Source of the DNA: a virus
Reading direction: 5' to 3' (one strand)
Virus record (IMG/VR): IMGVR_UViG_3300009502_000201
Span: 1-23,986 of that record
DNA length: 23,986 bases
Positions 1-23,986 of this stretch are shown here, piece after piece. The notes under the pieces are model-generated. The model was not told where the DNA came from. It saw only the letters and a program-made list of their open reading frames with translations, and did not search any database. The stretch's first letter is position 1, and the number at the start of each line of letters is the position of its first letter. Both the position numbers and the translations under genes were made by a program.

Positions 1-1158
1 GACACTGCGGACGAGATAGTGGATGCTATAGACGACCATCTGGATGCAGTAGAAAAAGGCGAGAAGCCAGGCAAGAAAAACATTGGACCGAAAGAACCGA
101 AGGGCCCAGAAGGCAAAGGCCCAGCGGGGAAGGAACCGCTCCTTATTGACGGCCAACCGCTTCCTCCAATGGAAGAAGGTGGTGGCATGGGGATGGGCGG
201 AAAGCCAGGCCCGATACCTCTTGCTTCAAGGATTCAGAACAGACTCCAGAGGCGTGCGGATGGCAACTCCGACATGATAGAGCAGATAAAAGCCGATGCA
301 AGTCTCACCCCTGAGCAGAAATGGGCGGAGATAAAGAAACTGCAAGGCCAGGGAGTTGGAACTCCTGCTGTTGCGGGCTACAAGGCAATCTTCACAAAGG
401 TGTCGGATGCCAAGAACCCCAAGATGGTAGACAGGAAGGCCTCCTACTGGTCGGTGCATGAAAGGAGGGCAGATGGTTCCCTCGGCGGGCTTGCAATCAG
501 GGCGACCGTGGAAGATATGTACGGCGAGAAATTCGCCCAGGCATATGAATGGGCTTCTTCAGTACCCTGCGGTAAGGAAATCCTTGCAAACATCGAGGAG
601 AAGGGTATAGAGCAGACCGCACAGGCTATGAACGTGGCCCCAAAGATGGTAAGGTCCGCAAAAGAGAAAATCGATATGCGGTCCTACTACAAAAAGATAT
701 TCCCCGACAAATATGTTTCCGAGCTCGTAAAGGAGCGGAAGAAATCGGCGGAACTCGAAATGAAACTTAAAACAGCGGAAGAGAGGGCGGTAAAGGGTGC
801 AAGGGCTGAAGAAGAACTTGTACTCCGCACGAAGGCCGAGAAATGCCTTAGTATCGTCCAGATGGCGGTTGACAAGGGTGCGATAGATGTAAAAGACTTC
901 GACACCACAGTTGACAGCCTGATGGAGAAGAGTGAAGACGGCGTGCAGGCGTTTGAAGAAGCCATAGCGTCAGTCAGGACGGTTGCCAGGACCGCCTCCA
1001 CAGAGAAGATACCTGCGGACAAGGCGATGGAGAGGATAGCGAGTCTCAGGAAAGGTGCGACACTCAAGACGCCGATAGTGATTCCTCAAACTGAACAGAA
1101 GTTTGAGACGGAACTCGGCAAGATGTTCAAACTACCGCCCAATGCCTCTGCGAGGTAA
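1..1158 (+). CDS. Scaffold-like capsid assembly protein (5' truncated)
   Basis: The frame is open from base 1, so the true start lies outside the window; the GTG at 19 is only an internal candidate. The visible 385 residues begin with a low-complexity Lys/Gly/Pro/Glu stretch (GPKEPKGPEGKGPAGKEP, then a Gly/Met-rich run). A mixed region with a helix-rich middle follows, then a strongly charged segment (about residues 235-290 from the GTG) that looks like a coiled coil, with ELVKERKKSAELEMKLK and EERAVKGARAEEEL. It lies directly upstream of a decoration-like gene and the MCP gene, the usual place of a prohead scaffold or a protease-scaffold fusion. No protease catalytic signature is seen in the visible part. 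The scaffold role is inferred from position, charge and predicted coiled coil; no family was recognised by sequence. Confidence 0.6.
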   Translation, partial: DTADEIVDAIDDHLDAVEKGEKPGKKNIGPKEPKGPEGKGPAGKEPLLIDGQPLPPMEEGGGMGMGGKPGPIPLASRIQNRLQRRADGNSDMIEQIKADASLTPEQKWAEIKKLQGQGVGTPAVAGYKAIFTKVSDAKNPKMVDRKASYWSVHERRADGSLGGLAIRATVEDMYGEKFAQAYEWASSVPCGKEILANIEEKGIEQTAQAMNVAPKMVRSAKEKIDMRSYYKKIFPDKYVSELVKERKKSAELEMKLKTAEERAVKGARAEEELVLRTKAEKCLSIVQMAVDKGAIDVKDFDTTVDSLMEKSEDGVQAFEEAIASVRTVARTASTEKIPADKAMERIASLRKGATLKTPIVIPQTEQKFETELGKMFKLPPNASAR

Positions 1159-1183
1159 TAGGGCGTAAATAGAGCCTTCGAAC

Positions 1184-1223
1184 GGGTGGGAAAGGAGTTT
1201 CTGGAGATTCTCTCGACCCACCC
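1184..1223 (+). other. Stem-loop between scaffold and decoration genes
   Basis: GGGTGGG at 1184-1190 can pair with CCCACCC at 1217-1223 around a 26-base loop. No T-run follows, so it is not a standard intrinsic terminator. It could protect or process the mRNA between two genes needed in different amounts. Its function is unknown. Confidence 0.3.
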
Positions 1224-1260
1224 AGACGAAAGTTCACAAAAAAAGGGGGTGAAAAAAACA

Positions 1261-1761
1261 ATGCTGAAGACACAAGGAATCTTTGAAGGGAACCCAAACG
1301 GCAATTATAAGATACATACTGAAGTCTATACTCTTGTAGGCACTGTTCCAGCGGAAATAATGAGTGCTTCCAATCTTGGACTCCAGAAACCTTATGGCGA
1401 ACAGGTTCTCGGATTCGGGGCAGGAATGATTGCACAGTTGAAAGCTGACAGCGGTGAGACGAAAGTCACCATCTCTGACGGAACGATGCCGTGCGGTATT
1501 TTTGCCGATTCGTTCGTGGACTGCCTGAAGAGCGGTAAGGCGACTTACTATGAATTCTTCGGAGACTATTTCACGGACATCATAGACCCTGCAGGAACGT
1601 ATACTACTGTCGGCACACTGCTCTATGTTGTAGCGTCAGGTGCGGATAAGGGTAAACTTACCACAGTGGTCGCAGGCCTGCCAGTTGGGGTAATCACCCA
1701 ATCACCAGACCTCGTAAACGGCGTGCTTCTGGGCTTTACCTGGAAGCCAGCCATTAACTAA
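1261..1761 (+). CDS. Putative capsid decoration / head stabilisation protein
   Basis: The product is 166 aa. ATG 1261 is chosen because AGGGGGTG lies about 10 bases upstream (1243-1250); the frame is open back to 1186 but has no ribosome-binding site there. The protein is small, rich in Gly, Val and Thr, and looks all-beta, with alternating hydrophobic strands such as ETKVTISDGTMPCGIFADSF and LPVGVITQSP. The pattern of a value being set and then read back (GVLLGFTW at the C-terminus) resembles the small beta-barrel proteins that trim the capsid surface. It sits between the scaffold-like gene and the MCP gene, the usual place for a decoration protein in phages with this gene order. The assignment rests on size, fold impression and position. 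No catalytic motif or membrane segment is visible. Confidence 0.5.
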   Translation: MLKTQGIFEGNPNGNYKIHTEVYTLVGTVPAEIMSASNLGLQKPYGEQVLGFGAGMIAQLKADSGETKVTISDGTMPCGIFADSFVDCLKSGKATYYEFFGDYFTDIIDPAGTYTTVGTLLYVVASGADKGKLTTVVAGLPVGVITQSPDLVNGVLLGFTWKPAIN

Positions 1762-1787
1762 CGTCATCAAAAGGAGGTGACAATCTA

Positions 1788-1961
1788 ATGCCACAAACTC
1801 TTCAAACTGAAACCTTAACTCCTGAACAGAAAGAGTATTTAATTGAAAAAGCTCTTTCGTCAGAAGCGGGGAAACAGGCACTGGCCTCTTCTATGGCGAA
1901 CCCAATCAGGCTAACACTTGATTACCAAGCCATCGGAAGGAAATTGGTCGTGGTAGACCCT
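1788..1961 (+). CDS. Major capsid protein, exon 1 (58 codons)
   Basis: This is the N-terminal part of the MCP, starting at ATG 1788 behind a near-perfect AAGGAGGTGA (1771-1780). The exon ends with codons for VVVDP, and the last base is T1961. Read without splicing, the frame continues into the intron and stops at 2058-2060, giving a 90-aa product whose last 32 residues are intron-encoded. Joining T1961 to T3008 keeps the frame (phase 0) and restores VVDP-LPQGALPVYDRDV. The join gives a 296-aa protein, a reasonable size for an HK97-fold MCP. The helical N-terminus (TPEQKEYLIEKALSSEAGKQ) fits an N-arm or delta region. The splice is inferred from exon continuity plus the ribozyme structure. Confidence 0.85.
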
Positions 1962-3007
1962 TTCAAATTAGGGGCTTATTGCGTTAACGCAGTAAGAAAA
2001 TTTGGCTATATGCTGGAAACTCTCGTTAAGTTGTCGGTAGTGGAGACACTAAAAACCTGACAAATAGAGACAATCAGCAGGGAAGTTGTTGTAAAATTTT
2101 CGGAGGATGAATGAGGGCAGGGGGAATACTAAATAAAGAAACACTGAAGATGGAATACGAAAACAACCTCAAAACGGCTGAACAAATTGCTGTTGCATAT
2201 GGGTCTAATAAAAAATCCGTGTTGAGGTTGATGAAAAAGTATTCCATTAAGCCCGTTCATACTCAGAGGAAATTTTTAGGTATCCAGAGCGTTGAGTTAA
2301 CCGATTTACAGAAGCAGGTTATATTTGGAACGGTTATGGGTGATGGATGCTTGGCGTTGCACGGCAGGGAAGCGAGGTTGATGATTGGGCAGTGTTTAGC
2401 CCAATATGAATACGTCGCCTGGAAGAGAGGCATCCTGCGGAGCGTAACACACCAAGACATCTATATCAAGAAAGACAAGCAGGGCCATTCTACTGCGAGT
2501 TTTTCGACATTAGTTCACCCAGGGTTAACCGAGATTTATAACTTGTTTTACACCCACAAGGTGAAGACGGTTACCAAGGCGGTCCTGGAAAACTTAACAC
2601 CAGTTAGTGTTGCAGTTTGGTATATGGACGACGGTAGTTGTGACAGGAAGACATCGAGATTGTGGACTTGTTCTTTCAGTGTGCAGGAGAATGAACTTAT
2701 AGCCGAGTGGTTTGCCAGTAAATATGGGATAGTGTGCGATGTTCGCACTTCCGTGATGGGGCGAAACCATAAAGAGTATTGCTATATCTCATTCGACACC
2801 GAGAACACTGAAAAGTTGCACTCCCTCGTCTCCTCATACCTACTGCCTTCTATGCAATATAAACTGGGTGACAACAACCCCTCAACGACTATACGCCGAA
2901 TATGTGAGCAATCGCATAATGATATAGTCTGTTCTGCACGGGAACGTGCAGAGCGGGGCAGAAATGACCTCGCCTTCAGCCGTAATTAGGTTGATGTAAC
3001 AACTAAG
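1962..3007 (+). ncRNA. Group I self-splicing intron interrupting the MCP gene
   Basis: The intron is 1046 nt. The 5' exon ends in U1961 and the intron ends in G3007, the two hallmark bases of group I splicing. Helices assignable by eye: P1, CCCU 1958-1961 with the guide GGGG 1971-1974 (U·G at the splice site); P2, 1975-1983 with 1988-1996, loop TTAA; P3, 2001-2006 (UUUGGC) with 2895-2900 (GCCGAA); P4, GCUG 2012-2015 with CAGC 2075-2078; P5, UCUC 2021-2024 with GAGA 2067-2070; P6, GGG 2080-2082 with CCC just before the R element. P7 is GACUA 2887-2891 with UAGUC 2925-2929. P8 is 2901-2907 with 2912-2918, capped by GCAA. A P9-type hairpin is 2933-2940 with 2945-2952, capped by GGAA. The GNRA loops and the P, Q, R and S-like segments fit the family. 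No extra P7.1/P7.2 helices separate P7 from P3. The endonuclease ORF starts within the P6 loop. Confidence 0.9.
2111..2989 (+). CDS. LAGLIDADG homing endonuclease inside the MCP intron
   Basis: The product is 292 aa. ATG 2111 follows CGGAGG (2101-2106) closely. Residues about 22-45 look like a DNA-binding helix-turn-helix (TAEQIAVAYGSNKKSVLRLM). The first LAGLIDADG helix is at 70-81 (IFGTVMGDGCL, acidic D78). The second is at about 165-176 (VAVWYMDDGS, D173/D174). Two motifs in one chain indicate a monomeric enzyme. Known members cut the intronless allele at the insertion site and so spread the intron; the inferred target is the MCP sequence around the VVDP|LPQGA codons. The last 35 or so residues (from NPSTTIRR onward) are encoded by bases that also form P7, P3, P8 and P9 of the ribozyme, so they are probably constrained by RNA rather than protein function. 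The frame stops at 2987-2989, just before the 3' splice site. Confidence 0.9.
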   Translation: MRAGGILNKETLKMEYENNLKTAEQIAVAYGSNKKSVLRLMKKYSIKPVHTQRKFLGIQSVELTDLQKQVIFGTVMGDGCLALHGREARLMIGQCLAQYEYVAWKRGILRSVTHQDIYIKKDKQGHSTASFSTLVHPGLTEIYNLFYTHKVKTVTKAVLENLTPVSVAVWYMDDGSCDRKTSRLWTCSFSVQENELIAEWFASKYGIVCDVRTSVMGRNHKEYCYISFDTENTEKLHSLVSSYLLPSMQYKLGDNNPSTTIRRICEQSHNDIVCSARERAERGRNDLAFSRN

Positions 3008-3724
3008 TTACCACAGGGTGCTCTTCCCGTGTACGACAGGGATGTTAAGATACCTGCAATAGTCGTCGGCAAGCGTGGAGGTGCTCCAGACTCCATCGTC
3101 GAGGGCGAAAGGTTTACTGTCGGGACGTGGGAGCTTCTTTCCTACCCGCAGGTGCGGTTCTCTCAGATAAAGGAAAGACGGTTTAATCTGATTGACCGTG
3201 CACAACAGAGGGCGAAACTCGACCTTATGGCGGAAGAAGATAAGAACATTTTCAACGCCGTGGACGTGTCGTCTACTGTCGTGAATCCGATTACCAACGT
3301 CGCAAACGCTCTTACCAGGGATGCGATGGTCACGGCTCTGGCTGAGGTCGGCAAGTGGGACCTCGTTCCGCAGAAGTTCGTAATGAACTACTCGGAATAT
3401 GCTGATATCATGAAATTCGGCAGAGACCAGTTCGACCCAGTAACTCAAAGGGAACTCCTGCAGACAGGACTTGTCGGGCATCTTTGGACGCTTGACATTC
3501 TCGTCAGCAAGATGGTTCCGAGAGGGACTGTGTACGTTCTTGCGGAACCCGAATTCGTCGGTGTTATGCCTATCAGGCAGGACATCAACGTCATTCCCGC
3601 AGACAAACCCGAGAGGCTTCGCCTCGGCTGGGTAGTCTACGAGGAAGTCGGCGTAGCAATCGTCAACCCGAGGGCGATAGCCAAGATAGCAGTATCTGGC
3701 AAAACACCGTTTACTCCTTGGTAA
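3008..3724 (+). CDS. Major capsid protein, exon 2 (C-terminal 238 aa)
   Basis: The frame opens after the endonuclease stop (2987-2989), and after splicing it is read from TTA 3008 as LPQGALPVYDRDV. Without splicing, only an internal GTG at 3029 could start it, with no convincing ribosome-binding site. The sequence is typical of an MCP family of contractile-tailed phages: a KRGGAPDSIVEGE segment, then RRFNLIDRAQQRAKLDLMAEE (a spine-helix-like stretch), then DIMKFGRDQFDPVTQRELLQTG and a closing VYEEVGVAIVNPRAI strand. In the mature virion hundreds of copies would form the icosahedral shell. Expression must depend on intron splicing, so capsid yield is tied to the ribozyme. MCP identity rests on position and recognised family pattern. 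Confidence 0.88.
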   Translation, partial: LPQGALPVYDRDVKIPAIVVGKRGGAPDSIVEGERFTVGTWELLSYPQVRFSQIKERRFNLIDRAQQRAKLDLMAEEDKNIFNAVDVSSTVVNPITNVANALTRDAMVTALAEVGKWDLVPQKFVMNYSEYADIMKFGRDQFDPVTQRELLQTGLVGHLWTLDILVSKMVPRGTVYVLAEPEFVGVMPIRQDINVIPADKPERLRLGWVVYEEVGVAIVNPRAIAKIAVSGKTPFTPW

Positions 3725-3769
3725 TCTAAGGATAAGCTGGTGGTTGGGGATTCAAATCGCAATCATATT

Positions 3770-3803
3770 GGTGGCCAGGGCGGGGGTTATTCCCCGCCCC
3801 ACC
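3770..3803 (+). other. GC-rich hairpin downstream of the MCP gene
   Basis: GGCGGGG 3779-3785 pairs with CCCCGCC 3792-3798 around a 6-base loop. Outer GGTGG (3770-3774) and CCACC bases near 3799-3803 can extend it. The bases after it are A-rich, not T-rich, so it is not a standard intrinsic terminator. A stable 3' hairpin could protect the abundant capsid mRNA or reduce read-through into the next gene. The rest of the 3725-3857 gap shows only the ribosome-binding site of the next gene. Confidence 0.55.
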
Positions 3804-3857
3804 ACCGATAAAATAAAAAATCATATAAAAAAAGACATTAAGAACCGAGGAGGAGTT

Positions 3858-4295
3858 ATGGAAGACAAAATCTACACGAAGGTAAAGAATATCAGCGGGG
3901 GCAACGTAGTAATCAGCACGCTCACGGGGTTCGTCATCACGAAGGACCAACAGATAGACCTCTCATCCAGTTTCAAAAAATCAGTGTTGGATGACGCATC
4001 GGGCGAAATTAAGGCTCTTATTAACGCCAAGTTGCTTGAAGACTTGGGTGATGGAGCCGATATCCGTGCCAATATCCCAGCGACAGACGGCATGATAACC
4101 AAGGAAGAACTGGAAAAGAAAAAGAGAGAGGCCAAGATAAGAGACATTCAAGGCTCTTCCAATGTCACGGCACTGGAAGATTACGCAAAAGATACCGACC
4201 CAGAGGTCGTCAAGGTTGCGAAAGCAAGGCTTGTCGAGCTCTTCGGCGATGATGAATCTGAATCAGGGTCAACAGTCGGCATAGGGTTGCAGTAA
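3858..4295 (+). CDS. Small acidic virion-region protein of unknown function
   Basis: The product is 145 aa. ATG 3858 has GAGGAGGAG immediately upstream and is preferred over in-frame non-ATG starts back to 3744. The N-terminal 60 residues look beta-rich (YTKVKNISGGNVVISTLTGF). A charged helix follows (ITKEELEKKKREAKIRD), then a helical segment, ALEDYAKDTDPEVVKVAKARL, that resembles HEAT-like or small helical repeats. The tail is acidic (FGDDESESGS). Its place between the MCP gene and the neck genes suggests a head-associated or assembly protein. I do not recognise the family. Confidence 0.7.
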   Translation: MEDKIYTKVKNISGGNVVISTLTGFVITKDQQIDLSSSFKKSVLDDASGEIKALINAKLLEDLGDGADIRANIPATDGMITKEELEKKKREAKIRDIQGSSNVTALEDYAKDTDPEVVKVAKARLVELFGDDESESGSTVGIGLQ

Positions 4296-4300
4296 AGCAG

Positions 4301-4357
4301 GAGGATGATAGGTGCCAGAGGAAATCTCTCTGGTCACCCCCTGGCATCCCTATCCTC
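4301..4357 (+). other. Imperfect inverted repeat overlapping a small ORF
   Basis: TGCCAG 4313-4318 pairs with CTGGCA 4341-4346, and GATAGG-like flanks (4307-4312) pair with CCTATC-like bases (4348-4354) across small bulges. A competing inner stem is CCAGAG 4315-4320 with CTCTGG 4327-4332. No T-run follows. The structure covers the start of the small ORF at 4312 and could hide or expose its initiation region. Confidence 0.4.
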
Positions 4358-4386
4358 TTCTTGGGCCCTACATAAAGGGGGAGTAA
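4312..4386 (+). CDS. Candidate 24-aa small protein, coupled to the next gene
   Basis: A GTG at 4312 follows a perfect AGGAGG (4299-4304) with a 7-base spacer. The frame encodes 24 residues (MPEEISLVTPWHPYPLLGPY followed by IKGE) and ends with TAA at 4384-4386, directly abutting the ATG of the next gene (TAAATG). The peptide is Pro- and aromatic-rich, with no clear membrane segment. It may be a real micro-protein or a leader ORF that couples translation into the 497-aa gene. The overlapping inverted repeat leaves a purely RNA role possible. Confidence 0.4.
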   Translation: MPEEISLVTPWHPYPLLGPYIKGE

Positions 4387-5880
4387 ATGACTTACCCAGC
4401 TAATTACGATGTTTTCACCACAAAGGTGAACATTGGACAAGCCATAGGCAACGAACCGCACACGATACCAGCCTCAAGCCCGTATCAGGTCACGCTGTTA
4501 CATTTAGCGAACACCAGTTCGATTGTCATTACTGGGACCATTCAACCCACCTACACCGAGGTAACTACTACCCCAGGCTTGCATCAATTCCTTGTCGATT
4601 ATTCTACTGGCGAGATAACTTTTAACGCTGGGGATATGAATGACACGTTGGCTATTAGTTATACGTGCGTCGGCGACTATGCGTCGGCTGACAACGTAAA
4701 TGCCCTTCAGGCGACCGCAGTCAACAACATAGAGCATACGCTTGGGCTCAATCCGCAGGGCTCCAAGGCTTCGCTGGTTGAGAGGCTTGGGATAGCACTT
4801 AATGACGATGGCACCATAAAAAGCAATTGGCTACTCAATATTAAGAAAAATAGTTCTTTAATCGTGTCTTCGGCCAAGGCAATAAACTTTGGCACTGGCA
4901 TCACTGTTGCGGATGCTGGCTCTGGTGTAGCGAATGTGAGCATGGCTACTGATGAGTGGCCGTTATTGTCAGATACTGGTGTTGGTGTTGCACAGGGAGG
5001 GGTCCCAAATCCGAACCTTGTTTTCAATAATTTGGGAACTGGATATAGCCAAGGAGACGTTTTGACGGTGGATGGCGGTAACAGAGATTGTATTATTACT
5101 GTTGCTGTGGATGGGAGTGGTTCTATTACTGCTTTCTACACGATGACTCATCCTGGTAGCGGGTATCTGTCGAATGTTTCATACCCGCTGACTGGTGGCA
5201 CTGGACACAACGCCTCTGGTTGGGTATATGCAATGCAATACCCAACCATCTCCATATCGCACGACGTTACTGGTATAGTCAGGGAGGGAGACAAGATAAA
5301 ATATACTGACAACGGGAGCGTGAAATACGCATACATACTTGCTGTCAGTTTTGCATCGTCAACGACCACCATAACATTGTCGAACAGTTTGGACTATGCT
5401 TTTTCTGCAAGTCCAGTAGCAATAACAAATATCTGCTACTCGAAAGTTGCGACACCGCAGGGCTTCCCAGATTGGTTTAATGCCCTGCCTCCGCAGTGGT
5501 TTGGGCTTACAAGTGCCACTCCGTCGTCAACGTTTAACAGGTTTAGGATAGACGGTGGTATATGCAGGATACTGGCACTGATTAGTGCGACCAAGTCTGG
5601 GGCTGATAATCTCGTTGGGTTTTCCATTGGGACACCAGACAGGCGACAATTTTTCACATCGTTCCCGCCAGTAGACCTGGGGGCATCGTTCTCTAACCAT
5701 ACATTTTCGGTTGGCGATGGTTACGTGGGGCCCAGCCCAGACATTTGCTTGTCTGGGTTTTACAGGGAGACTGTCGACTCTTATGTGATTGGCGGAAAGA
5801 TGTATTTGTATCGTAACGATTCATGGGCAGATAATGACCCAATTGTTGCTTTAACTTGCAATCTTACATACCCGATATAA
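4387..5880 (+). CDS. Putative virion fibre / head-decoration protein
   Basis: The product is 497 aa. ATG 4387 has AAAGGGGG upstream and abuts the preceding stop. Residues about 40-105 form a beta module (LVDYSTGEITFNAGDM, then LAISYTCVGDY) often seen at the N-termini of phage appendage proteins. A short helical link follows (ADNVNALQATAVNNIEHTLG). Residues about 215-285 carry a Gly-rich GTGYSQGDVLTV...GSGYLSNV pattern typical of trimeric phage fibre shafts. The C-terminal third is Ser/Thr/Gly-rich and looks like a beta-sandwich receptor- or surface-binding domain. It lies between head and neck genes rather than at the baseplate end, so a head fibre or whisker-type appendage is the best guess. 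Exact function is unknown. Confidence 0.6.
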   Translation: MTYPANYDVFTTKVNIGQAIGNEPHTIPASSPYQVTLLHLANTSSIVITGTIQPTYTEVTTTPGLHQFLVDYSTGEITFNAGDMNDTLAISYTCVGDYASADNVNALQATAVNNIEHTLGLNPQGSKASLVERLGIALNDDGTIKSNWLLNIKKNSSLIVSSAKAINFGTGITVADAGSGVANVSMATDEWPLLSDTGVGVAQGGVPNPNLVFNNLGTGYSQGDVLTVDGGNRDCIITVAVDGSGSITAFYTMTHPGSGYLSNVSYPLTGGTGHNASGWVYAMQYPTISISHDVTGIVREGDKIKYTDNGSVKYAYILAVSFASSTTTITLSNSLDYAFSASPVAITNICYSKVATPQGFPDWFNALPPQWFGLTSATPSSTFNRFRIDGGICRILALISATKSGADNLVGFSIGTPDRRQFFTSFPPVDLGASFSNHTFSVGDGYVGPSPDICLSGFYRETVDSYVIGGKMYLYRNDSWADNDPIVALTCNLTYPI

Positions 5881-5961
5881 AGGAGATTTTGGAAAACATA
5901 ACACATAGACAATAGGCACCCTACAGTAAGGCCTAATAATATAATATACTAAGGAGTAGGT

Positions 5962-7498: not shown

Positions 7499-7499
7499 G

Positions 7500-8831: not shown

Positions 8832-9646
8832 TATATAAACTTCTATACCATGTGAAGACTGGGATTATCAAGACGCTTCAAACGGCCCTTGAGCAGGACC
8901 CAGAGTTTTATCCAGATGGAGCTGGGGTCTCGAGAAGCAGTATCCCGAAGATTGTTGACGGGTGGAATTACGAGATGAGAGAATTCCCGATGGTTGTTGT
9001 CGCTGGGAGCAACGGTGGCAACAGAAGGGAAGGTATCGCTGATGCGGTTGATACAATTTACAGTGTGGTCTTTGACAAATCGATAGAGGACGCTGGCAGT
9101 TCTACCTTGAGGATTTTCAGGGTAAACCAGTGTCTGCCTATTGGGGCATCCATAAACGTATACAACCCCGCAACTACGCCGACGAATTTTACGGTTGCAG
9201 TGGAGGCGGGGTCTGGGACAGATACTGGCAAGAGGATAATTAAGTTGCACGGGACTGCCGTCGGGCCAGACACGACATACCCGCTTAAAGGGTTCAGGGC
9301 TCTGTCGGAACTCCCAACTGGGGACCGATTTGGTGGATGGTTTAATTTATCACTGGACATTACTTGTGTCGCCAGGAACACATTAGAAAGAGAGAGGTTG
9401 GCGGATAAAGTTTTGTCTCTTATTTGGTTTGATAGGAAGGCGTATTTGCGGGATACCTACAACATCCACATTTTTGACGTGAGGATGAGTGGGGAGACTG
9501 AAGAGAAATACGGGACAGACATGCTTTACTTTGCGAATATAAACATTACTTGTGCAACAGAATGGTCGGAGGTGAAGTGGTATGACAAAGTTCTGGAAGG
9601 AGTGGAGGTTGAAATCGCTGTAATCGACCCCAGTCTTATATTATAA
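8828..9646 (+). CDS. Putative tail terminator protein
   Basis: The product is 272 aa. ATG 8828 gives a 4-base ATGA overlap with the preceding stop; an in-frame GTG at 8816 is an alternative start. The N-terminus is helical (LYHVKTGIIKTLQTALEQDP). Strands and a basic SNGGNRREG loop follow. Residues about 104-160 are a beta module shared with the upstream gene (AGSGTDTG, then TTYPLKGF). The C-terminal part (SLDITCVARNTLERERLADK, then WFDRKAYLRD and VRMSGETEEKYGTDML) alternates helix and strand in the manner of tail-terminator or minor tail proteins that cap the tube before it joins the head. It lies directly upstream of the sheath gene, where the terminator gene usually is. Confidence 0.6.
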   Translation: MIYKLLYHVKTGIIKTLQTALEQDPEFYPDGAGVSRSSIPKIVDGWNYEMREFPMVVVAGSNGGNRREGIADAVDTIYSVVFDKSIEDAGSSTLRIFRVNQCLPIGASINVYNPATTPTNFTVAVEAGSGTDTGKRIIKLHGTAVGPDTTYPLKGFRALSELPTGDRFGGWFNLSLDITCVARNTLERERLADKVLSLIWFDRKAYLRDTYNIHIFDVRMSGETEEKYGTDMLYFANINITCATEWSEVKWYDKVLEGVEVEIAVIDPSLIL

Positions 9647-9678
9647 AGAATCATAAATCTCATTAAGGAGGGATTACA

Positions 9679-11061
9679 ATGGCTTACAGAGAACCAGGAG
9701 TTCAGAGCACTTTTGTAGCATCCCCTGGGGGTGAAAACCTCATAGGGAACATAAGGTTGCCCGCTATCATAGGACAGGGGTCGGCCTCATATACTGTGAC
9801 GGAGTTGGTGACAAGGGCGTCTTCAGGTACTACGGATACTCTCGCACACACCGCAACGCAGATTCTCCAAGTGGGCAACTACAGCACTACCACGGATTAT
9901 GTGTTGACGACAGACTATTTGCTTACAACTGGCAAGATAGACTGGTCACCCGCACACACTACACCTACTTCGGGTCAGAAATACTACGTGACTTACAAGT
10001 ATGCGAAGGTGTCGGGGGATTACGTGCCGAAACTATTCGACAATATCAACGATGTCATTGCTGAATACGGGCCGATAACTTACAACTCGTCCACGAAGCT
10101 CATTGACGTCACGGCATACCTGACGCTTGGTGCTTATCTTGCGTTCAAGAATGGTGCCCAGCAGGTCATCCTTGCCCAGGTAAACGACCCGACTACAGCG
10201 TCTTCCTTTGATGATGCGTTCACGCAACTCGAAGAAGAGGTTAGCGGTCAGAACCCGAATATTATTGTGCCGATATTCGATACGCTTTCTCATGTCGGTG
10301 CTCCTGCTTCACCATTTGACTCTGGCATTACCTTTGCCGTTGCTCACGTGTTGAAGATGGGTGCTCCCGAGTACGGGAAAGAAAGGACATTATTCACCAG
10401 CCTGTGGGATGGCTCTGCCACCACAGACCTCATTACTAAGGCGACTGCCATACATAATGAGAACATTTCGGTCATTGCACCTGCGAATGCCATTTTCACG
10501 GCTTCATATGCGGGAGCAACGGCGGACTGTCAAGTTGGCGGTGATTTCCTTGCGTGTGCGGTAGCGGGTTTAGGTGTAAGCCAAGACCCAGCAGAACCGT
10601 ACACCAGGAAGTTAATCAACGGCTTCAAGTCACTGGTAACACCGCTCCTTACGCAAGTCCAAAGGATAAACCTTGCGAGTGCGGGGGTCATGGTCCTGAA
10701 GCAGACCGCAGGCATCATTAGGGTGTCACAAGGCCTTACAACGGACCCGTCGACCGTCAACACTTCGCAGGTAACGGTTCCGCAGATAAAGGCTTGGACA
10801 ATCCAGAACGTCAGGCATGCGTGCGATTCTTATATCGGCAAGAAGTTTGCCGATGGCACCACGAAGAAAATCGAGGTGACGGTTTCCAATGTCCTTGAGC
10901 AGATTGTCGACGCTGAGATTATTACGAAGTATGCGAACGTTTCGGCGAAACAAGACCCGCTTAATCCGCTGAAGGCCAAGGTATCGTTTAGCATATTGCC
11001 GATGTATTCTCTTGACTACATTGACATAACGTTCACCATAGACCTCGGTCTATTATCATAA
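9679..11061 (+). CDS. Contractile tail sheath protein
   Basis: The product is 460 aa. ATG 9679 follows GGAGGG. The start MAYREPGVQS is typical of sheath proteins, as is the conserved C-terminal core: SAGVMVLKQTAGIIRVSQGL, IKAWTIQNVRHACDSY, then a DAEIITKYANVSA region, ending in an LDYIDITFTIDLGL strand that would take part in inter-subunit beta-sheet exchange. An extra beta module (about residues 42-115, with TTDYVLTTDYLLTTGKIDW and YYVTYKY) is inserted near the N-terminus and recurs in the J-like baseplate protein. Copies would stack as rings around the tube and contract on infection to drive the tube through the host envelope. This is the clearest identification in the window. Confidence 0.95.
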   Translation: MAYREPGVQSTFVASPGGENLIGNIRLPAIIGQGSASYTVTELVTRASSGTTDTLAHTATQILQVGNYSTTTDYVLTTDYLLTTGKIDWSPAHTTPTSGQKYYVTYKYAKVSGDYVPKLFDNINDVIAEYGPITYNSSTKLIDVTAYLTLGAYLAFKNGAQQVILAQVNDPTTASSFDDAFTQLEEEVSGQNPNIIVPIFDTLSHVGAPASPFDSGITFAVAHVLKMGAPEYGKERTLFTSLWDGSATTDLITKATAIHNENISVIAPANAIFTASYAGATADCQVGGDFLACAVAGLGVSQDPAEPYTRKLINGFKSLVTPLLTQVQRINLASAGVMVLKQTAGIIRVSQGLTTDPSTVNTSQVTVPQIKAWTIQNVRHACDSYIGKKFADGTTKKIEVTVSNVLEQIVDAEIITKYANVSAKQDPLNPLKAKVSFSILPMYSLDYIDITFTIDLGLLS

Positions 11062-12412: not shown

Positions 12413-14407
12413 ATGATTGATGAAATAAGAGGTGGCGGAGAAAGGGGTTCGTGGTCTGGCTCTGGAGAGCCAGAGTCACTTGCACGGTCCAAGACCGATG
12501 CAATGTTAATGGACAGGCTCTCTTCCTTGGCGACAAGTATAGACAGGTTATCGGCCAACGTTGCTGGACCACAGGGTGGACGTGGTGGTTCGGCAAATGA
12601 TGGAGTTTCCAACGCCACCACAACGATAGAGCGGGCAATTAAAGAGTCCATGGAGTCGTTCACCCACAACCTAAAGGAAAGTCTGAATGTTGTCGCCAAA
12701 TATGAGCAAGATGGTGTGACTAAAACCATGTTTGCACAGTGGAGACAAAGTGACGAATCTCGGTCCGATAGTTACCAGAAGGAATACGAAGAAAAAATAA
12801 AAATGATAGAGAAGACCAGGGCGTATACCGACATAATGAAATCTGCCACCAAGGAGACTGGTGACCTCACTGGTATATTGTCCAAGTTTAATAATATGAA
12901 AATCGGCCAGGCAACGTTGGATATTTCGGAAGGAAAGGACCTTATCAGGGAAGGCTCCAGGATAAACGATATTGGTATGATAAAGGCTGGTCAGGCGTTA
13001 AAGGGAGCTGGGGAAGAGGCTCTTCTGGCCTCCACAAAAATGTCGTTACTTATTGGGGCTGTTGGTGCAGTTGCTATGGCATCGGAAGAGACCCTTGCCC
13101 AGTCGAGAAAAATAACCCAAGTGCAGGAAAGTTATGGCTACCGTCAACACGGGGACACCTCTGACAGATTGATGGGTGGAATCTTGGGTCGCCACATGAC
13201 GTCGCAAAGGATGCTCTTTGAGGTAGATAAAGATGAAACGCTGAAGAGAATGGGGGGCATGCAGAGGCGTGGTGTTGGTGCTGGAATGGACCCCTTATCG
13301 GGAATGAACGAGAACATGGCAATAGATACGACAATTGGGGTTATGAACCGTGGATATAACATTGGCGGAGACACGCTTGAAAAAATAGCAACCAGTATGA
13401 GTGTTCGTTTTGCTATGCCCGCTGATAAGGTGAGTAATGCCCTCGTTGGTATGGCGATGCGGGCTGACAAGGCTGGCATGGCCCAGGCTCAATATATGGA
13501 GAACGTGGAAGCGTTAAACGAGGCCACGAAACAGTTTGGACGGACATACTATCAATCTGAGTCCATAGTTCAGGCTTTTAATGATGTGTTGAAAAGACAG
13601 ATTATTAACCAGCAGACGTTGGTTGCTTTGTCAGAGCCGTCAAAGATGGGGATGGGGCAACAGGTGTGGTTGGGTGAACAGATGGGGTTTAAGGGGAATT
13701 TTGCCCAAATTATGGAGCAGTTGCAAAACTTTGCAAATAAAGACCCTAATGGATTCATAACCGCACAGACGGGAATCATGCGAAAGGCCGTGGGCGGGGA
13801 AGGCGTTGCGAAAACTGTTATGACCAACATGCTTGCAAAGTCTTTTAATGAAGATTTCAGTGGTGGTAGTGGAAGAATTAGCACTATGGCGTCAGTGATG
13901 AATGATTCCCTGAGGGCGAGCGGGAATAAGAACATGGGGGCGTCTGTTTTGGACACCGAGGGGATGCTTCTGGATGTGGGCTTAAACGTAGCAAAAGACA
14001 AAGGGATTATACAGTCGACAAAGGATTTAACCCGTGCCGTTATCGATTATGGCCTTGGTCCCATTGGCACCAGTATTGACCCTATCAATAATATCGCCCA
14101 AGTTATGGTTTCAAGTGCCGATAGGCTCTCGGAACGGTCAAAGCAGGTTGGGGAGGATGTTAAGGGCTCAAAGGCTTCTGGTGGAGGGGTTTCAGAGGAT
14201 GGAAAGTACCAACTTCACGCAGGCGAGCATGTCTTGCGACCAGGTGAGCGTGCTGGGGGGACTATTAGCATAGAGCTTGGACCTGGCTCTATTGTTGTTG
14301 GCGGTGGAGATACTGAGAAGAATGTGGACCTTGCTCTGGATAGGTTAAAGGGAGAAATTATGAAAGAAGTTAACATTAAGTGGCGTGAAGCCGTTGGGTC
14401 GAGGTAG
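12413..14407 (+). CDS. Tail tape measure protein
   Basis: The product is 664 aa. ATG 12413 follows GAGGGG. It is the long gene after the chaperone pair, largely helical, Ala/Met/Gly-rich, with a Gly/Ser-rich N-terminus. A coiled-coil-prone stretch covers about 70-160. A hydrophobic segment (about 209-224, SLLIGAVGAVAMA) may become a pore or membrane helix after ejection. The C-terminus has HAGEHVLRPGE and a Gly-rich strand (ELGPGSIVVGGG), a common ending of tape measures. At about 0.15 nm per residue the tail would be near 100 nm. The protein would fill the tube lumen, set its length and leave before the DNA. No lytic domain is visible. Function is inferred from size, position and composition. 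Confidence 0.85.
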   Translation: MIDEIRGGGERGSWSGSGEPESLARSKTDAMLMDRLSSLATSIDRLSANVAGPQGGRGGSANDGVSNATTTIERAIKESMESFTHNLKESLNVVAKYEQDGVTKTMFAQWRQSDESRSDSYQKEYEEKIKMIEKTRAYTDIMKSATKETGDLTGILSKFNNMKIGQATLDISEGKDLIREGSRINDIGMIKAGQALKGAGEEALLASTKMSLLIGAVGAVAMASEETLAQSRKITQVQESYGYRQHGDTSDRLMGGILGRHMTSQRMLFEVDKDETLKRMGGMQRRGVGAGMDPLSGMNENMAIDTTIGVMNRGYNIGGDTLEKIATSMSVRFAMPADKVSNALVGMAMRADKAGMAQAQYMENVEALNEATKQFGRTYYQSESIVQAFNDVLKRQIINQQTLVALSEPSKMGMGQQVWLGEQMGFKGNFAQIMEQLQNFANKDPNGFITAQTGIMRKAVGGEGVAKTVMTNMLAKSFNEDFSGGSGRISTMASVMNDSLRASGNKNMGASVLDTEGMLLDVGLNVAKDKGIIQSTKDLTRAVIDYGLGPIGTSIDPINNIAQVMVSSADRLSERSKQVGEDVKGSKASGGGVSEDGKYQLHAGEHVLRPGERAGGTISIELGPGSIVVGGGDTEKNVDLALDRLKGEIMKEVNIKWREAVGSR

Positions 14408-14415
14408 GAGGAAGA

Positions 14416-17732: not shown

Positions 17733-17737
17733 CAACA

Positions 17738-18898: not shown

Positions 18899-18907
18899 GG
18901 AGGCAGT

Positions 18908-19330
18908 ATGTCCTTTGCATTAAAAATAGTCGATAAAGACCTGGTGTTTGACGGGTCTGGTAAATTAGAGACCGTAACTGGCTCAGATAAGCTCGTGCAG
19001 GGATTAAACAAGATTCTGGTAACTGAGCGGGGAAGAAATTTTCTACACCAGCAATATGGCTCTACGCTCTACAATTTACTCGGCAAGAAGTTTTCTTCTG
19101 CCCTGATGACGTCCTTGCTGTCGAAGAACTTGGCACAGACGCTGGCTTGCTTTCAACAGATACAACAGAATCAGAGGATGAACCAATACGTAGCCCCGAG
19201 TGAAATAATAGCATCGGTGGACTCGATTGTGGTCGCCAGGATGGGGCCAGCTCAAGTGGCCTTTAATACGGTACTTAGAACACTTAATGGTGCTCAGATT
19301 AGAACATTAACCAACATACAAAATACGTAA
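18908..19330 (+). CDS. gp25-like baseplate wedge protein
   Basis: The product is 140 aa. ATG 18908 follows AGGAGG overlapping the previous stop. The layout is that of the T4 gp25 / P2 gpW family: an N-terminal VTGSDKLVQGLNKILVTERG with the conserved 'ERGRNFLHQQYGSTL' turn, a helical middle (LMTSLLSKNLAQTLACFQQI), and a C-terminal strand pair (VDSIVVARMG). These proteins sit in the inner baseplate wedge next to the hub and seed the sheath. Its gene order (spike, gp25, J, I) is the standard order of simple contractile baseplates. Confidence 0.88.
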   Translation: MSFALKIVDKDLVFDGSGKLETVTGSDKLVQGLNKILVTERGRNFLHQQYGSTLYNLLGKKFSSALMTSLLSKNLAQTLACFQQIQQNQRMNQYVAPSEIIASVDSIVVARMGPAQVAFNTVLRTLNGAQIRTLTNIQNT

Positions 19331-19340
19331 TGGAGGGATT

Positions 19341-20960
19341 ATGCCTACAGTTTATAATAGAACAACCGAAGCGATAACTCGGGGAACCACGCCTGGCGGG
19401 ACGGATACATTACTCTATACCGCTATCAATATTGTCAGGATAGGGAACACCTCGATATCGACCGACTACAGCCCCAGCACGGACTATAATCTCTCTCCGA
19501 GTGGAGCGGTTGATTGGTCTCCGTTGGGTGTGGAGCCAGTTGCAAATGCAACCTATTATGTGACCTATGATTACTACCCGCAGAACAGACTGAAGACTAT
19601 AGACAACGTCATCACTGACATGAGGGCTGATGTAAAGATAAATAATCCGCTCATAGATATCAGTGAAGGTGAAATCGTCAACGATATCTTTATAGAGGTC
19701 CCAGCGAAACAGATTACAGACCTGTATTCGACGGCGGAGCATATTGGCCTGATACAGTCGCTCAAGAATCCAGACGAGTTCTCTACGCAAGAGATGAACG
19801 ATTGTGCGTATAATTATAACTTGACCAGGAAGCCTGCAACAACCTCGGTTGGATTCGCATTGTTTACTGCAAGAGTTGCACCAGTGGCAGATATTATCAT
19901 TATTGTTGGGACTCAGATTTCTACGTTGGCGACATCTACTACGCCGTCGGTGACGTTCCAGGTTACAACGTCTACAGTTTTACTTGCTGGGACATATTCA
20001 GTCTTGGTACCAATAGAATCCGTTGCGGTAGGAGTGTCGAACAATGTCGGGGCGAACACTATCTCTACTTTGACCACACCGATAAGCGGTGTCACTGGGG
20101 TTACCAATCCAGGGGCGACTACTGGCGGAACGGACCAGGAATCCAATGCCAGCCTGGCCAACAGAATAATCAACGTGTGGTCTGGGGCGAACATCGGGAC
20201 AAAGCAGGGTATTCAGAACCTGATGCTGGCCCAGAATAACGTAGAGATGGCACTTGTTCAAGGATGGGGAGACCCGCTGATGACCAGGGACAATGGTTAC
20301 GGTGGGAAAGTGGACGTTTACATTATGGCTGAGTCCAACTACTCTACACCCATCACCGATGAAGAGACTACGGATTACGGCGGTGGGAATATAATTCTGG
20401 CCAAACAACCAGTGTTATCTATTTCTGGCGTTAAGGTGAACAACGTCGCAATAAGCCCATCGAATTATTCACTGGTGAAAGATTCTTCTGGTGTCGGGGG
20501 AAGCACGAGAGCCCAGGATGCGGTGAGCTTCAGCGTGCCACCGTCACTACACGATGATGTAAGAATATCTTACACATACAACAGCCTGATTGAATCCCTA
20601 CAGGCCCTGGTGGATGAGGATGTGAACCATATTGTGACGGCAGATGTGTTGATAAAGTCGACAGTTGAAGTTCTTGTCGACATGACATTCCAGATTTCCA
20701 TACAACCAGTCGGGTCTACATTTGCCACGGTGAGAGATAACGTAGCGACTGCGTTAACCAATTTTATAAACATCAAGTCGCTTGGTGCGAAGATTCTGTA
20801 CAGTGACATGATAGGTGTCGCCCGCTCAGTGCTCGGCGTAGTAGAAGTCCAGGTCCCGTTCACCTTACTTGCGAGACACGGAGCCAGTGGCGTGGGAGAC
20901 ATCACGTGCACGGCAAAAGAATTCCCGAGAATGGGAATCCCGACTATAACGGAGATTTAA
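19341..20960 (+). CDS. Baseplate J-like wedge protein
   Basis: The product is 539 aa. ATG 19341 follows GGAGGG. The first 85 residues are an extra beta module (TDTLLYTAINIVRIGNTS, TDYNLSPSGAVDWSP, then YYVTYDYY) closely similar to the one in the sheath. The rest follows the J/gp6 pattern: NPLIDISEGEIVNDIFIEVP, a helix (QITDLYSTAEHIGLIQS), a central beta domain, GGTDQESNASLANRIINVWS, then IGTKQGIQNLMLAQNNVEMA, and a C-terminal VRDNVATALTNFINIKSLGA. Dimers of this type form the wedge ring that surrounds the hub and changes shape on contraction. It lies between the gp25-like and I-like genes. Confidence 0.88.
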   Translation: MPTVYNRTTEAITRGTTPGGTDTLLYTAINIVRIGNTSISTDYSPSTDYNLSPSGAVDWSPLGVEPVANATYYVTYDYYPQNRLKTIDNVITDMRADVKINNPLIDISEGEIVNDIFIEVPAKQITDLYSTAEHIGLIQSLKNPDEFSTQEMNDCAYNYNLTRKPATTSVGFALFTARVAPVADIIIIVGTQISTLATSTTPSVTFQVTTSTVLLAGTYSVLVPIESVAVGVSNNVGANTISTLTTPISGVTGVTNPGATTGGTDQESNASLANRIINVWSGANIGTKQGIQNLMLAQNNVEMALVQGWGDPLMTRDNGYGGKVDVYIMAESNYSTPITDEETTDYGGGNIILAKQPVLSISGVKVNNVAISPSNYSLVKDSSGVGGSTRAQDAVSFSVPPSLHDDVRISYTYNSLIESLQALVDEDVNHIVTADVLIKSTVEVLVDMTFQISIQPVGSTFATVRDNVATALTNFINIKSLGAKILYSDMIGVARSVLGVVEVQVPFTLLARHGASGVGDITCTAKEFPRMGIPTITEI

Positions 20961-20961
20961 T

Positions 20962-21957
20962 ATGCCAAAATACCATTCTTTTAGATATGGAGAGCGTGGC
21001 TATAGTGGTCCGATAATAATTGTGAACACTGTCAATCAACTACCAAGCATTGGTGCTGGTAATGTTTATTACGCAGACATGCTTGCGAATTTGGCGGACG
21101 AGCATGTCTATCCGACTGACGATAACTATATCGCTACAGTGACAGCGAAACCAGTTGCTGTTACTGGGACCAGTGGACTGGGTGCGGATATAACTTTAAC
21201 GACAAACGGGACCCATACGGTAACAGCAACCGCAGACGGGCTGGGTAATTGGACGGCAGACCTGCAATTGTTCGAGGGGTTGAACACAATAGAAGGCAAG
21301 TATCATTACGTAGATGACGGCGGTATTCCAATTTACGGGGTATTCCCGCCAATCTACGTGATATGCAACGACATACATTTGTTCCTGTATGTGATGTGCA
21401 AGCAGTTCAACTTAGTGAAGAACGAGTTGGATAGCACGTCGCTCGACTCCAATTTACTTTACACGAGAGGGGAAAGGCTCGAAGAAATATGGGGGACGAA
21501 ATTGAACTTTGCGTATGACGAGAATGTTTCCTACGCCCAGTATCGTGCCATACTGTTTGGGTTGACTAAAGTGTATCTCGGCGGGTCCACGCTGGCTAAT
21601 TTGAAATATGCCCTTATGTTACTCGCCAACAACCCAGGGGTGAAGATATACGAGTTCTGGAGGGACGCCAGTAAGATGGTGGCGAACCGAGAGGTTTATT
21701 GGCAATGGAACCATTTGTCAAGTGTTTGGAATGGAGAGTCTTACAGGTGGCTTGATACCAGGGCCTTTGAAAGGCTGGGCCTGACTCAGTTCGGGTGCCA
21801 AATATTATTTCCAATAGATAATTATACTGGGCCGTTGGAGTATGCGAGCGTTGCCATCAACTTAACCAGGCCCGCTCACTTAATTTATTCTTTAATACTC
21901 TGGCTGACGACTTATTTCCCAGTGCCAGACAATGACGTCACATACACGTTGGCTTAG
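20962..21957 (+). CDS. Baseplate I-like wedge protein with Ig-like insertion
   Basis: The product is 331 aa. ATG 20962 lies one base after the J-like stop with GGAG at 20951-20954. The N-terminal third has an Ig-like segment (about 55-110, with TTNGTHTVTATADGLGNW and LFEGLNTIEGKY). The core is helical (SLDSNLLYTRGERLEEIWG, then YAQYRAILFGLTKVYLG and LANLKYALMLLANNPG), typical of tail protein I-like partners of J that connect wedge and fibres. The C-terminal region is aromatic-rich (WQWNHLSSVWNGESYRWL) and ends in a hydrophobic LIYSLILWLTTYF segment. The I-like assignment is based on position after J and on the helical core pattern; the Ig-like call is moderate. Confidence 0.65.
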   Translation: MPKYHSFRYGERGYSGPIIIVNTVNQLPSIGAGNVYYADMLANLADEHVYPTDDNYIATVTAKPVAVTGTSGLGADITLTTNGTHTVTATADGLGNWTADLQLFEGLNTIEGKYHYVDDGGIPIYGVFPPIYVICNDIHLFLYVMCKQFNLVKNELDSTSLDSNLLYTRGERLEEIWGTKLNFAYDENVSYAQYRAILFGLTKVYLGGSTLANLKYALMLLANNPGVKIYEFWRDASKMVANREVYWQWNHLSSVWNGESYRWLDTRAFERLGLTQFGCQILFPIDNYTGPLEYASVAINLTRPAHLIYSLILWLTTYFPVPDNDVTYTLA

Positions 21958-21968
21958 GAGGAATTAAA

Positions 21969-22664
21969 ATGGCTACAGGACAGATAGTGGTAAATGGAAG
22001 AGTCCTTGAATCCCGACTGATGCAGGGTGATACGGTCGCAGGGATAACTAAATTCGCAATCGGCACAGGAGATGGTTCCTGGAATGTCGCTAATCCCCCA
22101 GTGGCAAAAGATGTCGGAGGGAACAGTCTCGACATCTCGTATAGCGGGAGTGGCCTTGGCGTTGTCGTTGGTGCTGGGGCACTATATTTTAGCGGGACCG
22201 CCTTAGATGTCCCACAGACGATTCTGGACGACACGACAACACCAGCGATAGTTGTAAGTCAATACAACCATATAATGGTGGATAACGCTGGCGTGTTTAC
22301 GGTAACGGCAACCTCTTCGGCGACAACTCCTACGATTCCGTCGGGCAATATTTACATAGGATACGTGAACACCGATGCGACCGTAGTTCTTACGATATAC
22401 AACCAGGCCAACATGGTGCACGAACTTGCCAGGGTCAGCGTGGTAATAAGTTTTATCGATTTACAGGGAGATGTCACTCTTGAGGCTACAAACAGGATAA
22501 GGGTGACCGCAACGTTTGGGGCTGGGGTTGGAACTGGAGATATCATGGAGTTCGCTCTGTTTGGTGGAGCGGGTGACAGTGTAATGATAGCGTATAAAAC
22601 GGTTCAAGTTATTCATAAATTATCTACCAACGCTTTGAACGTTGTGTGGGATTTATCATTCTAA
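21969..22664 (+). CDS. Baseplate-to-fibre linker / short tail fibre candidate
   Basis: The product is 231 aa. ATG 21969 follows AGGAGG. The N-terminus (GQIVVNGRVLESRLMQGDTV and FAIGTGDGSWN) carries the 'G(T)GDxSWxxxNPP' phrase common in the attachment domains of tail fibre-like proteins. Alternating strands and Gly/Thr-rich loops follow, with RIRVTATFGAGVGTGDIMEF near the C-terminus. It lies between the I-like gene and the long fibre gene. An adaptor or short fibre role is inferred. No chaperone or collar motif is present. Confidence 0.55.
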   Translation: MATGQIVVNGRVLESRLMQGDTVAGITKFAIGTGDGSWNVANPPVAKDVGGNSLDISYSGSGLGVVVGAGALYFSGTALDVPQTILDDTTTPAIVVSQYNHIMVDNAGVFTVTATSSATTPTIPSGNIYIGYVNTDATVVLTIYNQANMVHELARVSVVISFIDLQGDVTLEATNRIRVTATFGAGVGTGDIMEFALFGGAGDSVMIAYKTVQVIHKLSTNALNVVWDLSF

Positions 22665-22674
22665 AGGAGGCACT

Positions 22675-23986
22675 ATGCCAGTAACACCAGACATTTCGAG
22701 GGATACATTTCCTACAAATAAACCCAAGAACTATTCAAGGGTGACGATTCAGCAAGGTAAATCTGGGGTGGACGCTGAGATTAACGAGGCTCTTGACCAG
22801 CAGAACTTTGAACGTAGACAGCTAAGCGATGACCTGATTGTGGACGGGGCTATCTCTTCTGGCTTCCTTGTAGTCGGGACTGGAGCTGTTAACCAAGTGA
22901 ATATAATGGCTACGGGTTCCGCTCAAGACGGCATCACTGTCGGGAGAATCCGTCTAAACAACTGGAGGCTTGACCTCCCAGTAGACTTCACGTCTACAGA
23001 TGCTGGCCACTACGCTTTAACTGGCTCAAATTATTACACGCTGACTGGGTTCACTACTCCAGGTGTCGATAGAATAGACCTGGTTTACCTGGAAGCCTTT
23101 GAGGAGGATATAGATTCCTCAATAGATTCATATTTAATTGACCCCGTGATAACCACCGAATGTGCCATCAGGAAGAGGGTTAAATACATCCTACAGATAG
23201 CGGAAGGCACTACGGTTATTCCGTCTCTCGGTGCGGGGCATTACGGATTAAGATTAGCTACTATAGCGAGACATGCAAGTGTCGGGACAATTGTGGCTGG
23301 AGACGTGACCGATGTGAGGCCAACTTGCACGTTTGCTGACAGTATCAATCCAGAAGTTGTCACAGCCAGGGGCTCTCTTGCGTCGTTAAATGCACGCCTG
23401 AGCGTTTCCTTGAAGCCGACAGACGGGACACTCGTGGACTCGATTGTAGATGGAGCGACACTACAGAAAGTCTCAAATGTCCTGTCGGTAAAGGATGCGG
23501 GAATTGTCAGTGCAAAAATAGCAAGTGGAGCGGTAGAGTCTACCAAGATTGCAACTGGTGGTGTTGCAACAGCCAATATTGCTGACCTCGCCGTTACGGG
23601 TGCGAAGATAGCCAACGCCACGATAGATGCGAGCAAAGTTATAGATAATTCTATCACTGGGACCAAGATTGCAGATGCGAGTGTGACACTTGGAAAGCTT
23701 GCTCCGTTATCGGTAGACAACTCAAAACTTGTGGACCTTGCGGTAACAACCCCCAAGATAGTCGACCAGGCGGTAACTGCGAGCAAAATAGCGTCAGGGA
23801 CAATCACTGATACCCAGATAAGCTCGTCGGCGGGTATTGCTATCAGCAAAGTAAACACAGATACACTGCTTGAGGTGGGTGATACAAAGTGGAGAATGTG
23901 TGCTACCGTAGTTGCGGGTGCAAGATGGTTACTGATGGACGGAAAGACCATTGGTGATGCTTCCAGTGGTGCAACGGCATTGGCGA
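22675..23986 (+). CDS. Long tail fibre with decapeptide repeats and collar domain (3' truncated)
   Basis: ATG 22675 follows AAAGGAGG, and the frame is open to the window end (437 codons visible). The N-terminus (YSRVTIQQGKSGVDAEINEA, then LDQQNFERRQL) resembles the 'QQGRVxLDAxxNE' start of a phage tail-associated family (DUF6519-like) and probably anchors to the baseplate. A beta domain covers about 55-230. A repeat block of 11 decapeptides follows (nt 23497-23826). A collar-type segment begins near the end (ARWLLMDGKTIGDASSG), a domain often found in fibres near the receptor-binding tip. This protein most likely determines host attachment. The receptor-binding end lies outside the window. 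Confidence 0.75.
   Translation, partial: MPVTPDISRDTFPTNKPKNYSRVTIQQGKSGVDAEINEALDQQNFERRQLSDDLIVDGAISSGFLVVGTGAVNQVNIMATGSAQDGITVGRIRLNNWRLDLPVDFTSTDAGHYALTGSNYYTLTGFTTPGVDRIDLVYLEAFEEDIDSSIDSYLIDPVITTECAIRKRVKYILQIAEGTTVIPSLGAGHYGLRLATIARHASVGTIVAGDVTDVRPTCTFADSINPEVVTARGSLASLNARLSVSLKPTDGTLVDSIVDGATLQKVSNVLSVKDAGIVSAKIASGAVESTKIATGGVATANIADLAVTGAKIANATIDASKVIDNSITGTKIADASVTLGKLAPLSVDNSKLVDLAVTTPKIVDQAVTASKIASGTITDTQISSSAGIAISKVNTDTLLEVGDTKWRMCATVVAGARWLLMDGKTIGDASSGATALA
23497..23826 (+). repeat. 11 tandem 30-bp codon-phased repeats (decapeptide shaft)
   Basis: Eleven 10-residue units follow each other without gaps, with consensus near xxVxxxKIAx (for example GAVESTKIAT, LAVTGAKIAN, QAVTASKIAS, GTITDTQISS). 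The DNA units are diverged while the protein period is exact, so selection acts on the protein. Such repeats form trimeric beta-structured fibre shafts. Confidence 0.85.

What the first reader, a model, noticed from the sequence alone, without database searches (positions are those of the whole stretch)
1..23986. Five palindromic tetranucleotides (GATC, CCGG, GCGC, CGCG, CTAG) appear completely absent
Reading the whole window by eye, checking GATC twice (through every GAT and every ATC) and the others through shared trinucleotides, I found no GATC, CCGG, GCGC, CGCG or CTAG. With equal independent bases about 94 of each are expected (23,983/256). Other palindromes do occur (GGCC at 103, GTAC at 519, AGCT at 722, TCGA at 671), so this is not a general lack of palindromes. 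CTAG is rare in many genomes, but joint absence of all five in coding DNA suggests selection by several host restriction systems or exclusion by hosts with those specificities. It is a possible fingerprint for host matching.
Basis: partly seen in the sequence, partly recalled or inferred. Interest (0 to 1): 0.8.

Follow-up and report, generated by a model that had tools for sequence, protein, structure and literature searches.

The report
Phage DNA purged of six restriction sites
This 24-kb piece of a large bacterial virus has lost every copy of six short DNA words that bacterial defence enzymes typically cut, and the purge is so complete that two alanines never sit side by side in any of its proteins.

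Summary
GATC, CCGG, GCGC, CGCG and CTAG are all at zero in 23,986 nt (55-88 expected each). A sixth palindrome, GCNGC, is also at zero (64 expected). With proteins and codon usage held fixed, 29-78 copies of each are still expected. No non-palindromic 4-mer is missing.

The window is a whole IMG/VR contig: head and tail genes of a myovirus whose capsid protein is 63% identical to Bacillus phage G. Relatives have purged other palindromes (CTAG 0/788 in 316 kb, CCGG 0/626 in 379 kb). Among 78 contigs the window is the extreme.

Ala-Ala is always GCN-GCN, which contains GCNGC. The window has no Ala-Ala in 7,771 residues (48.5 expected). Where relatives have Ala-Ala, it is kept 0 of 57 times. Ala-Ala also falls with GCNGC in unrelated phages: SPO1 31/38, A511 7/30, Staphylococcus phage K 3/63.

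Best explanation: a probably lytic phage selected by several host Type II restriction systems, strongly enough to change protein sequence. Site avoidance is long known. The six-fold extent and the dipeptide ban were not found in the papers searched. The host and its enzymes are unidentified.

The parts
1..23986 (.). Whole contig free of GATC, CCGG, GCGC, CGCG, CTAG and GCNGC on both strands
1788..1960 (+). Major capsid protein, exon 1 (end approximate; ORF 1788-2060 reads on into the intron)
   Evidence: PHROG 2522 major head protein; junction judged from uninterrupted L002 capsid
1960..3008 (+). Putative group I intron (bounds approximate); about 14 of the six sites expected, none present
   Evidence: RF00028 match 2721-2951, 32.8 bits, E 2.2e-6, below the gathering score of 50; expectation
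2111..2989 (+). LAGLIDADG_2 homing endonuclease inside the putative intron
   Evidence: PF03161 105 bits, PHROG 11023
3008..3724 (+). Major capsid protein, exon 2; 62.6% identical to Bacillus phage G gp27
9679..11061 (+). Tail sheath protein
   Evidence: PHROG 2839; 32% to phage G gp178
12413..14407 (+). 664-aa protein without a family match, at the tape-measure position of the tail module (inferred)
   Evidence: no match; order compared with phage G
17717..18898 (+). Baseplate protein with Phage_base_V OB domain
   Evidence: PF04717
18908..19330 (+). Baseplate wedge (gp25-like) protein
   Evidence: PHROG 2669 and 120
19341..20960 (+). Baseplate wedge (J-like) protein
   Evidence: PHROG 6; 29% to phage G gp188
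1186..1761 (+). ORF upstream of the capsid gene; here four relatives have GFAAG and the window GFGAG

Best explanation
The contig belongs to a large, probably obligately lytic myovirus related to Bacillus phage G. It replicates in hosts that between them carry several Type II restriction systems cutting GATC, CCGG, GCGC, CGCG, CTAG and GCNGC. Each unmodified site is a chance of being cut, so variants that lost sites were favoured until none was left. Most sites were lost by synonymous changes. GCNGC cannot be lost that way where two alanines are adjacent, so there amino acids were replaced, and the proteins have no Ala-Ala. Shown: the absences, their confinement to palindromes, their independence of codon usage, the Ala-Ala ban and its tracking of GCNGC loss in other phages, and different palindrome sets in relatives. 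Inferred: that host restriction enzymes are the agents, that several hosts or systems are involved, that the phage is lytic, and that its DNA is unmodified.
For: Six palindromes at zero; the codon shuffle still expects 29-78 of each. Asp before C is GAC 60, GAT 0. Only palindromes are eliminated: 0 of 240 non-palindromic 4-mers in the window or any of 11 relatives. The motif set differs between close relatives and holds genome-wide in large records. No Ala-Ala in 7,771 aa against 48.5 expected, other spacings 48-62; 0 of 57 aligned Ala-Ala kept against 24% of A.A pairs. Independent phages show the same link between GCNGC and Ala-Ala. Site elimination is an established anti-restriction strategy, almost only for orthodox Type II sites and more in non-temperate phages.
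Against: No host, restriction enzyme or methylome was identified. Only 24 kb of this genome is known. GCNGC is usually not avoided by phages. The comparison of methyltransferase-free with methyltransferase-bearing records is weak (p = 0.036, 11 related and partly incomplete records).
Confidence: 0.85

Rival explanations
1. The phage encodes its own sequence-specific nucleases that destroy host DNA, and its genome lacks those sites for self-protection.
For: The rest of the genome is unknown. Some viruses of algae encode restriction enzymes (own knowledge).
Against: No restriction or methylation gene is seen in the window (the only nuclease is the intron endonuclease). Relatives with genome-wide elimination (G001, G033, G035, G038, G039) lack the three methyltransferase families searched. 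Their restriction nucleases were not exhaustively searched. Six private nucleases would be needed.
Confidence: 0.06
2. The sites are avoided because of modification-dependent enzymes: DNA methylated in one host at GATC or GCNGC is cut in the next host by DpnI- or BisI-type enzymes.
For: BisI-type enzymes cut methylated GCNGC, and GATC is a Type IIM site avoided by phages.
Against: It explains at best two of the six motifs and needs methylating hosts as well; Rusinov et al. see only weak avoidance for this class.
Confidence: 0.05
3. Mutation bias, codon usage or tRNA adaptation, without selection on DNA sites.
For: CTAG is rare in many genomes (own knowledge); GC content varies widely among these relatives.
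Against: Codon-usage-preserving shuffles expect 322 sites in all. Only palindromes are lost. Ala-Ala is lost while alanine itself is common.
Confidence: 0.02
4. An artefact of library preparation or assembly, such as DNA digested with frequent cutters before sequencing.
For: The preparation of the source metagenome is unknown here.
Against: An unpurged genome would hold no 24-kb stretch free of about 320-400 expected sites. Relatives from many metagenomes and the cultured phage K behave alike with other motif sets.
Confidence: 0.01

Closest known systems
Restriction-site avoidance in prokaryotic viruses (Rusinov et al. 2018, PMC6286503)
   Same: Elimination of palindromic Type II sites from a dsDNA phage genome, by single-base changes
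   Different: Six motifs at exactly zero at once; includes GCNGC, which that survey found usually not avoided; the loss extends to amino-acid sequence
Staphylococcus phage K (KF766114), elimination of GATC sites (reviewed in PMC6532042)
   Same: GATC 0/371, GGCC 0/88, GGNCC 1/100, GCNGC 3/57.5 and Ala-Ala 3 of 63 expected
   Different: Not a phage G relative; keeps CCGG, GCGC and CTAG; three GCNGC remain
Phage G-like relatives in IMG/VR (G001, G004, G029, G033, G035, G038, G039)
   Same: Same clade by capsid protein; complete or near-complete loss of some palindromes
   Different: Other motif sets in each; none lacks GCNGC; at most three tetramers lost
Bacillus phage G (NC_023719)
   Same: Capsid 62.6%, sheath 32%, baseplate 29% identical
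   Different: No tetramer eliminated in about 315 kb, GC 0.30, and it carries methyltransferase genes

Membership tests
Restriction-site avoidance (anti-restriction by site elimination) | Recognition-like palindromes depleted well below compositional expectation (under 0.1) | tested here: met
   0 against 55-88 each; GCNGC 0 against 64
Restriction-site avoidance (anti-restriction by site elimination) | Depletion not explained by codon usage or protein sequence | tested here: met
   Synonymous codon shuffle
Restriction-site avoidance (anti-restriction by site elimination) | Confined to palindromes of Type II kind | tested here: met
   0 of 240 non-palindromic 4-mers; only GCNGC variants among absent pentamers without an absent tetramer
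Restriction-site avoidance (anti-restriction by site elimination) | Host carries restriction systems with the matching specificities | not testable with these tools
   Host unknown; genome scans with capsid and intron endonuclease found nothing
Restriction-site avoidance (anti-restriction by site elimination) | Absence holds over the whole genome | tested here: inconclusive
   Only 24 kb of this phage is held; genome-wide in relatives for other motifs
Phage G-like myoviruses | Phage G-like capsid, sheath and baseplate genes | tested here: met
Phage G-like myoviruses | Giant genome (hundreds of kb) | not testable with these tools
   The record is a 24-kb fragment; relatives reach 139-441 kb
Group I intron (RF00028) | Covariance-model match at the curated cut-off | tested here: not met
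   32.8 bits against 50, E 2.2e-6, whole model matched; so called putative here

The most novel reading that the evidence does not exclude
Restriction pressure does not stop at silent codon changes. Where the site is GCNGC it forbids the dipeptide Ala-Ala, so host restriction enzymes dictate phage protein sequence. The effect is graded: across unrelated phages Ala-Ala observed/expected falls with GCNGC observed/expected (SPO1, A511, phage K, this window).
Probability: 0.8. Interest if true: 0.65.

Novelty: new variant of a known kind. Interest (0 to 1): 0.6.

Why it matters
It is a clean, countable case in which a bacterial defence appears to constrain the amino-acid sequence of a virus and not only its codons. 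It yields a one-line test, counting Ala-Ala, that can be run on every phage genome and followed up in cultured phages. The clade also offers closely related giant phages that have each purged a different set of sites, which could make the missing set a predictor of hosts for uncultured phages.

Tried and rejected
Host: capsid-profile and intron-endonuclease scans of 84,980 genomes found nothing. Rest of this phage: terminase and portal searches gave related contigs, none with the six-motif fingerprint. Tail sheath in IMG/VR: no relatives. No tRNA and no Rfam match at gathering score. CCSGG and GGSCC are redundant with CCGG and GGCC and were dropped. A link to Fusobacterium nucleatum, whose named enzymes (from memory) include GCNGC, CGCG, GCGC and GATC cutters, was considered and set aside because its GC content (from memory) is far too low. 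Mutation bias and artefact were rejected. The idea that purging replaces methylation is kept only as weak support (p = 0.036, 11 related records).

Full report
WHAT IS THERE. GATC, CCGG, GCGC, CGCG and CTAG are at zero in 23,986 nt, with first-order Markov expectations of 88, 77, 57, 55 and 67. A scan of longer palindromes found a sixth total absence, GCNGC, 0 against 64, with all four variants at zero. GTAC (17/80), AGCT (28/71) and CTNAG (41/77) are partly depleted. Shuffling synonymous codons among 24 CDSs, which keeps every protein and the codon usage, still gives 74.6, 77.6, 54.2, 49.5, 37.0 and 29.4 expected copies for GATC, CCGG, GCGC, CGCG, CTAG and GCNGC. The third base of a codon follows the next base: Asp before C is GAC 60, GAT 0, while elsewhere both codons are common. 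The putative intron, where about 14 sites are expected, has none either.

THE CARRIER. The window is a complete IMG/VR record and so a fragment of a phage. It carries head and tail genes: major capsid (62.6% identical to Bacillus phage G gp27), sheath (32%) and baseplate. The capsid gene is interrupted by a putative group I intron with a LAGLIDADG_2 endonuclease.

RELATIVES. A capsid profile found 53 loci in IMG/VR. Many have purged palindromes, but different ones. L005, 81% identical in capsid, lacks GATC and GGCC and keeps CCGG (101/59). L002, 79% identical, lacks GTAC. In large records the absence is genome-wide: CTAG 0/788 in 316 kb, CCGG 0/626 in 379 kb, GCGC 0/223 in 167 kb, GGCC 1/459 in 440 kb, and in the 139-kb G001 GTAC 0/153 plus 25 of 46 testable palindromic hexamers. 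No non-palindromic 4-mer of 240 is eliminated in any of them, and non-palindromic hexamers of matched composition seldom are, for example 4 of 237 in G001. Phage G shows no elimination in about 315 kb. Among 78 contigs of at least 9 kb the window, with six motifs, is the most extreme; 50 contigs have none.

INTO THE PROTEIN. Ala-Ala is always GCN-GCN and so always contains GCNGC; no synonymous change can remove it. The window has 614 alanines in 7,771 residues and no Ala-Ala (48.5 expected), while alanines two to five residues apart occur 48-62 times. The zero follows necessarily from the DNA; the point is that alanines are otherwise plentiful. In alignments with ten relatives, Ala-Ala in the relative is kept 0 of 57 times in the window, although alanine pairs one residue apart are both kept in 17 of 72 (24%). 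At that rate, 0 of 57 has a chance of about 2e-7; the relatives are not fully independent, so the figure is only a guide. At one site four relatives have GFAAG and the window GFGAG.

THE SAME IN OTHER PHAGES. Staphylococcus phage K, outside this clade, has GCNGC 3 against 57.5 and Ala-Ala 3 against 63, with normal spacing controls. Members of its family fall in line: Listeria A511 GCNGC 7/42, Ala-Ala 7/30; Bacillus SPO1 49/62 and 31/38 (50 kb each). Most phages with ordinary GCNGC numbers have ordinary Ala-Ala; KHP30 is intermediate (15 against 34). Rusinov et al. found GCNGC usually not avoided, which fits its amino-acid cost (inference).

MECHANISM. Losing orthodox Type II sites is the simplest counter to restriction and is most pronounced in non-temperate dsDNA phages. 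All six words are known Type II sites (own knowledge). The different sets in close relatives suggest that each lineage met a different set of systems (inference). Records without the three methyltransferase families searched tend to have purged more hexamers (p = 0.036), but the sample is small, related and incomplete, and one record with three methyltransferases (G029) still lacks CTAG. No host could be found, so the enzymes remain inferred.

NOVELTY. Site avoidance is known, and the lack of GATC in phage K is a textbook case. In the papers searched I did not find six complete eliminations together, nor a statement that site avoidance forbids a dipeptide. The library lacks most subscription journals, so this is a limited search.

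Noticed in passing
window 1960-3008; L005 about 9006-9970: The major capsid gene is split by a putative group I intron with a LAGLIDADG_2 endonuclease; L005 has an insert of about 1 kb at or near the same codon, and L009's capsid gene is also split.
   Followed up: partly
window, L002, L005, L006, L007, L011: Capsids 73-81% identical to the window, yet contig GC runs from 0.38 to 0.66 and capsid third-position GC from 0.34 to 0.93. The cause of this fast drift is unknown.
   Followed up: partly
G001 (L060-L066): 25 of 46 testable palindromic hexamers are eliminated in 139 kb, with only one tetramer (GTAC) lost.
   Followed up: partly
Staphylococcus phage K (L244, L246-L250), Listeria A511 (L251), Bacillus SPO1 (L252): Ala-Ala depletion tracks GCNGC depletion in a second phage family.
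   Followed up: yes
G029 (L094-L109): CTAG 0 against 788 in 316 kb although three DNA methyltransferase genes are present.
   Followed up: no
G008 44558-45079 (L056): A C5 methyltransferase match with an in-frame TAA stop, possibly a broken gene.
   Followed up: no
L184, L185: Distant terminase relatives that lack CATG (0/52, 0/45), GATC and CCGG altogether.
   Followed up: no
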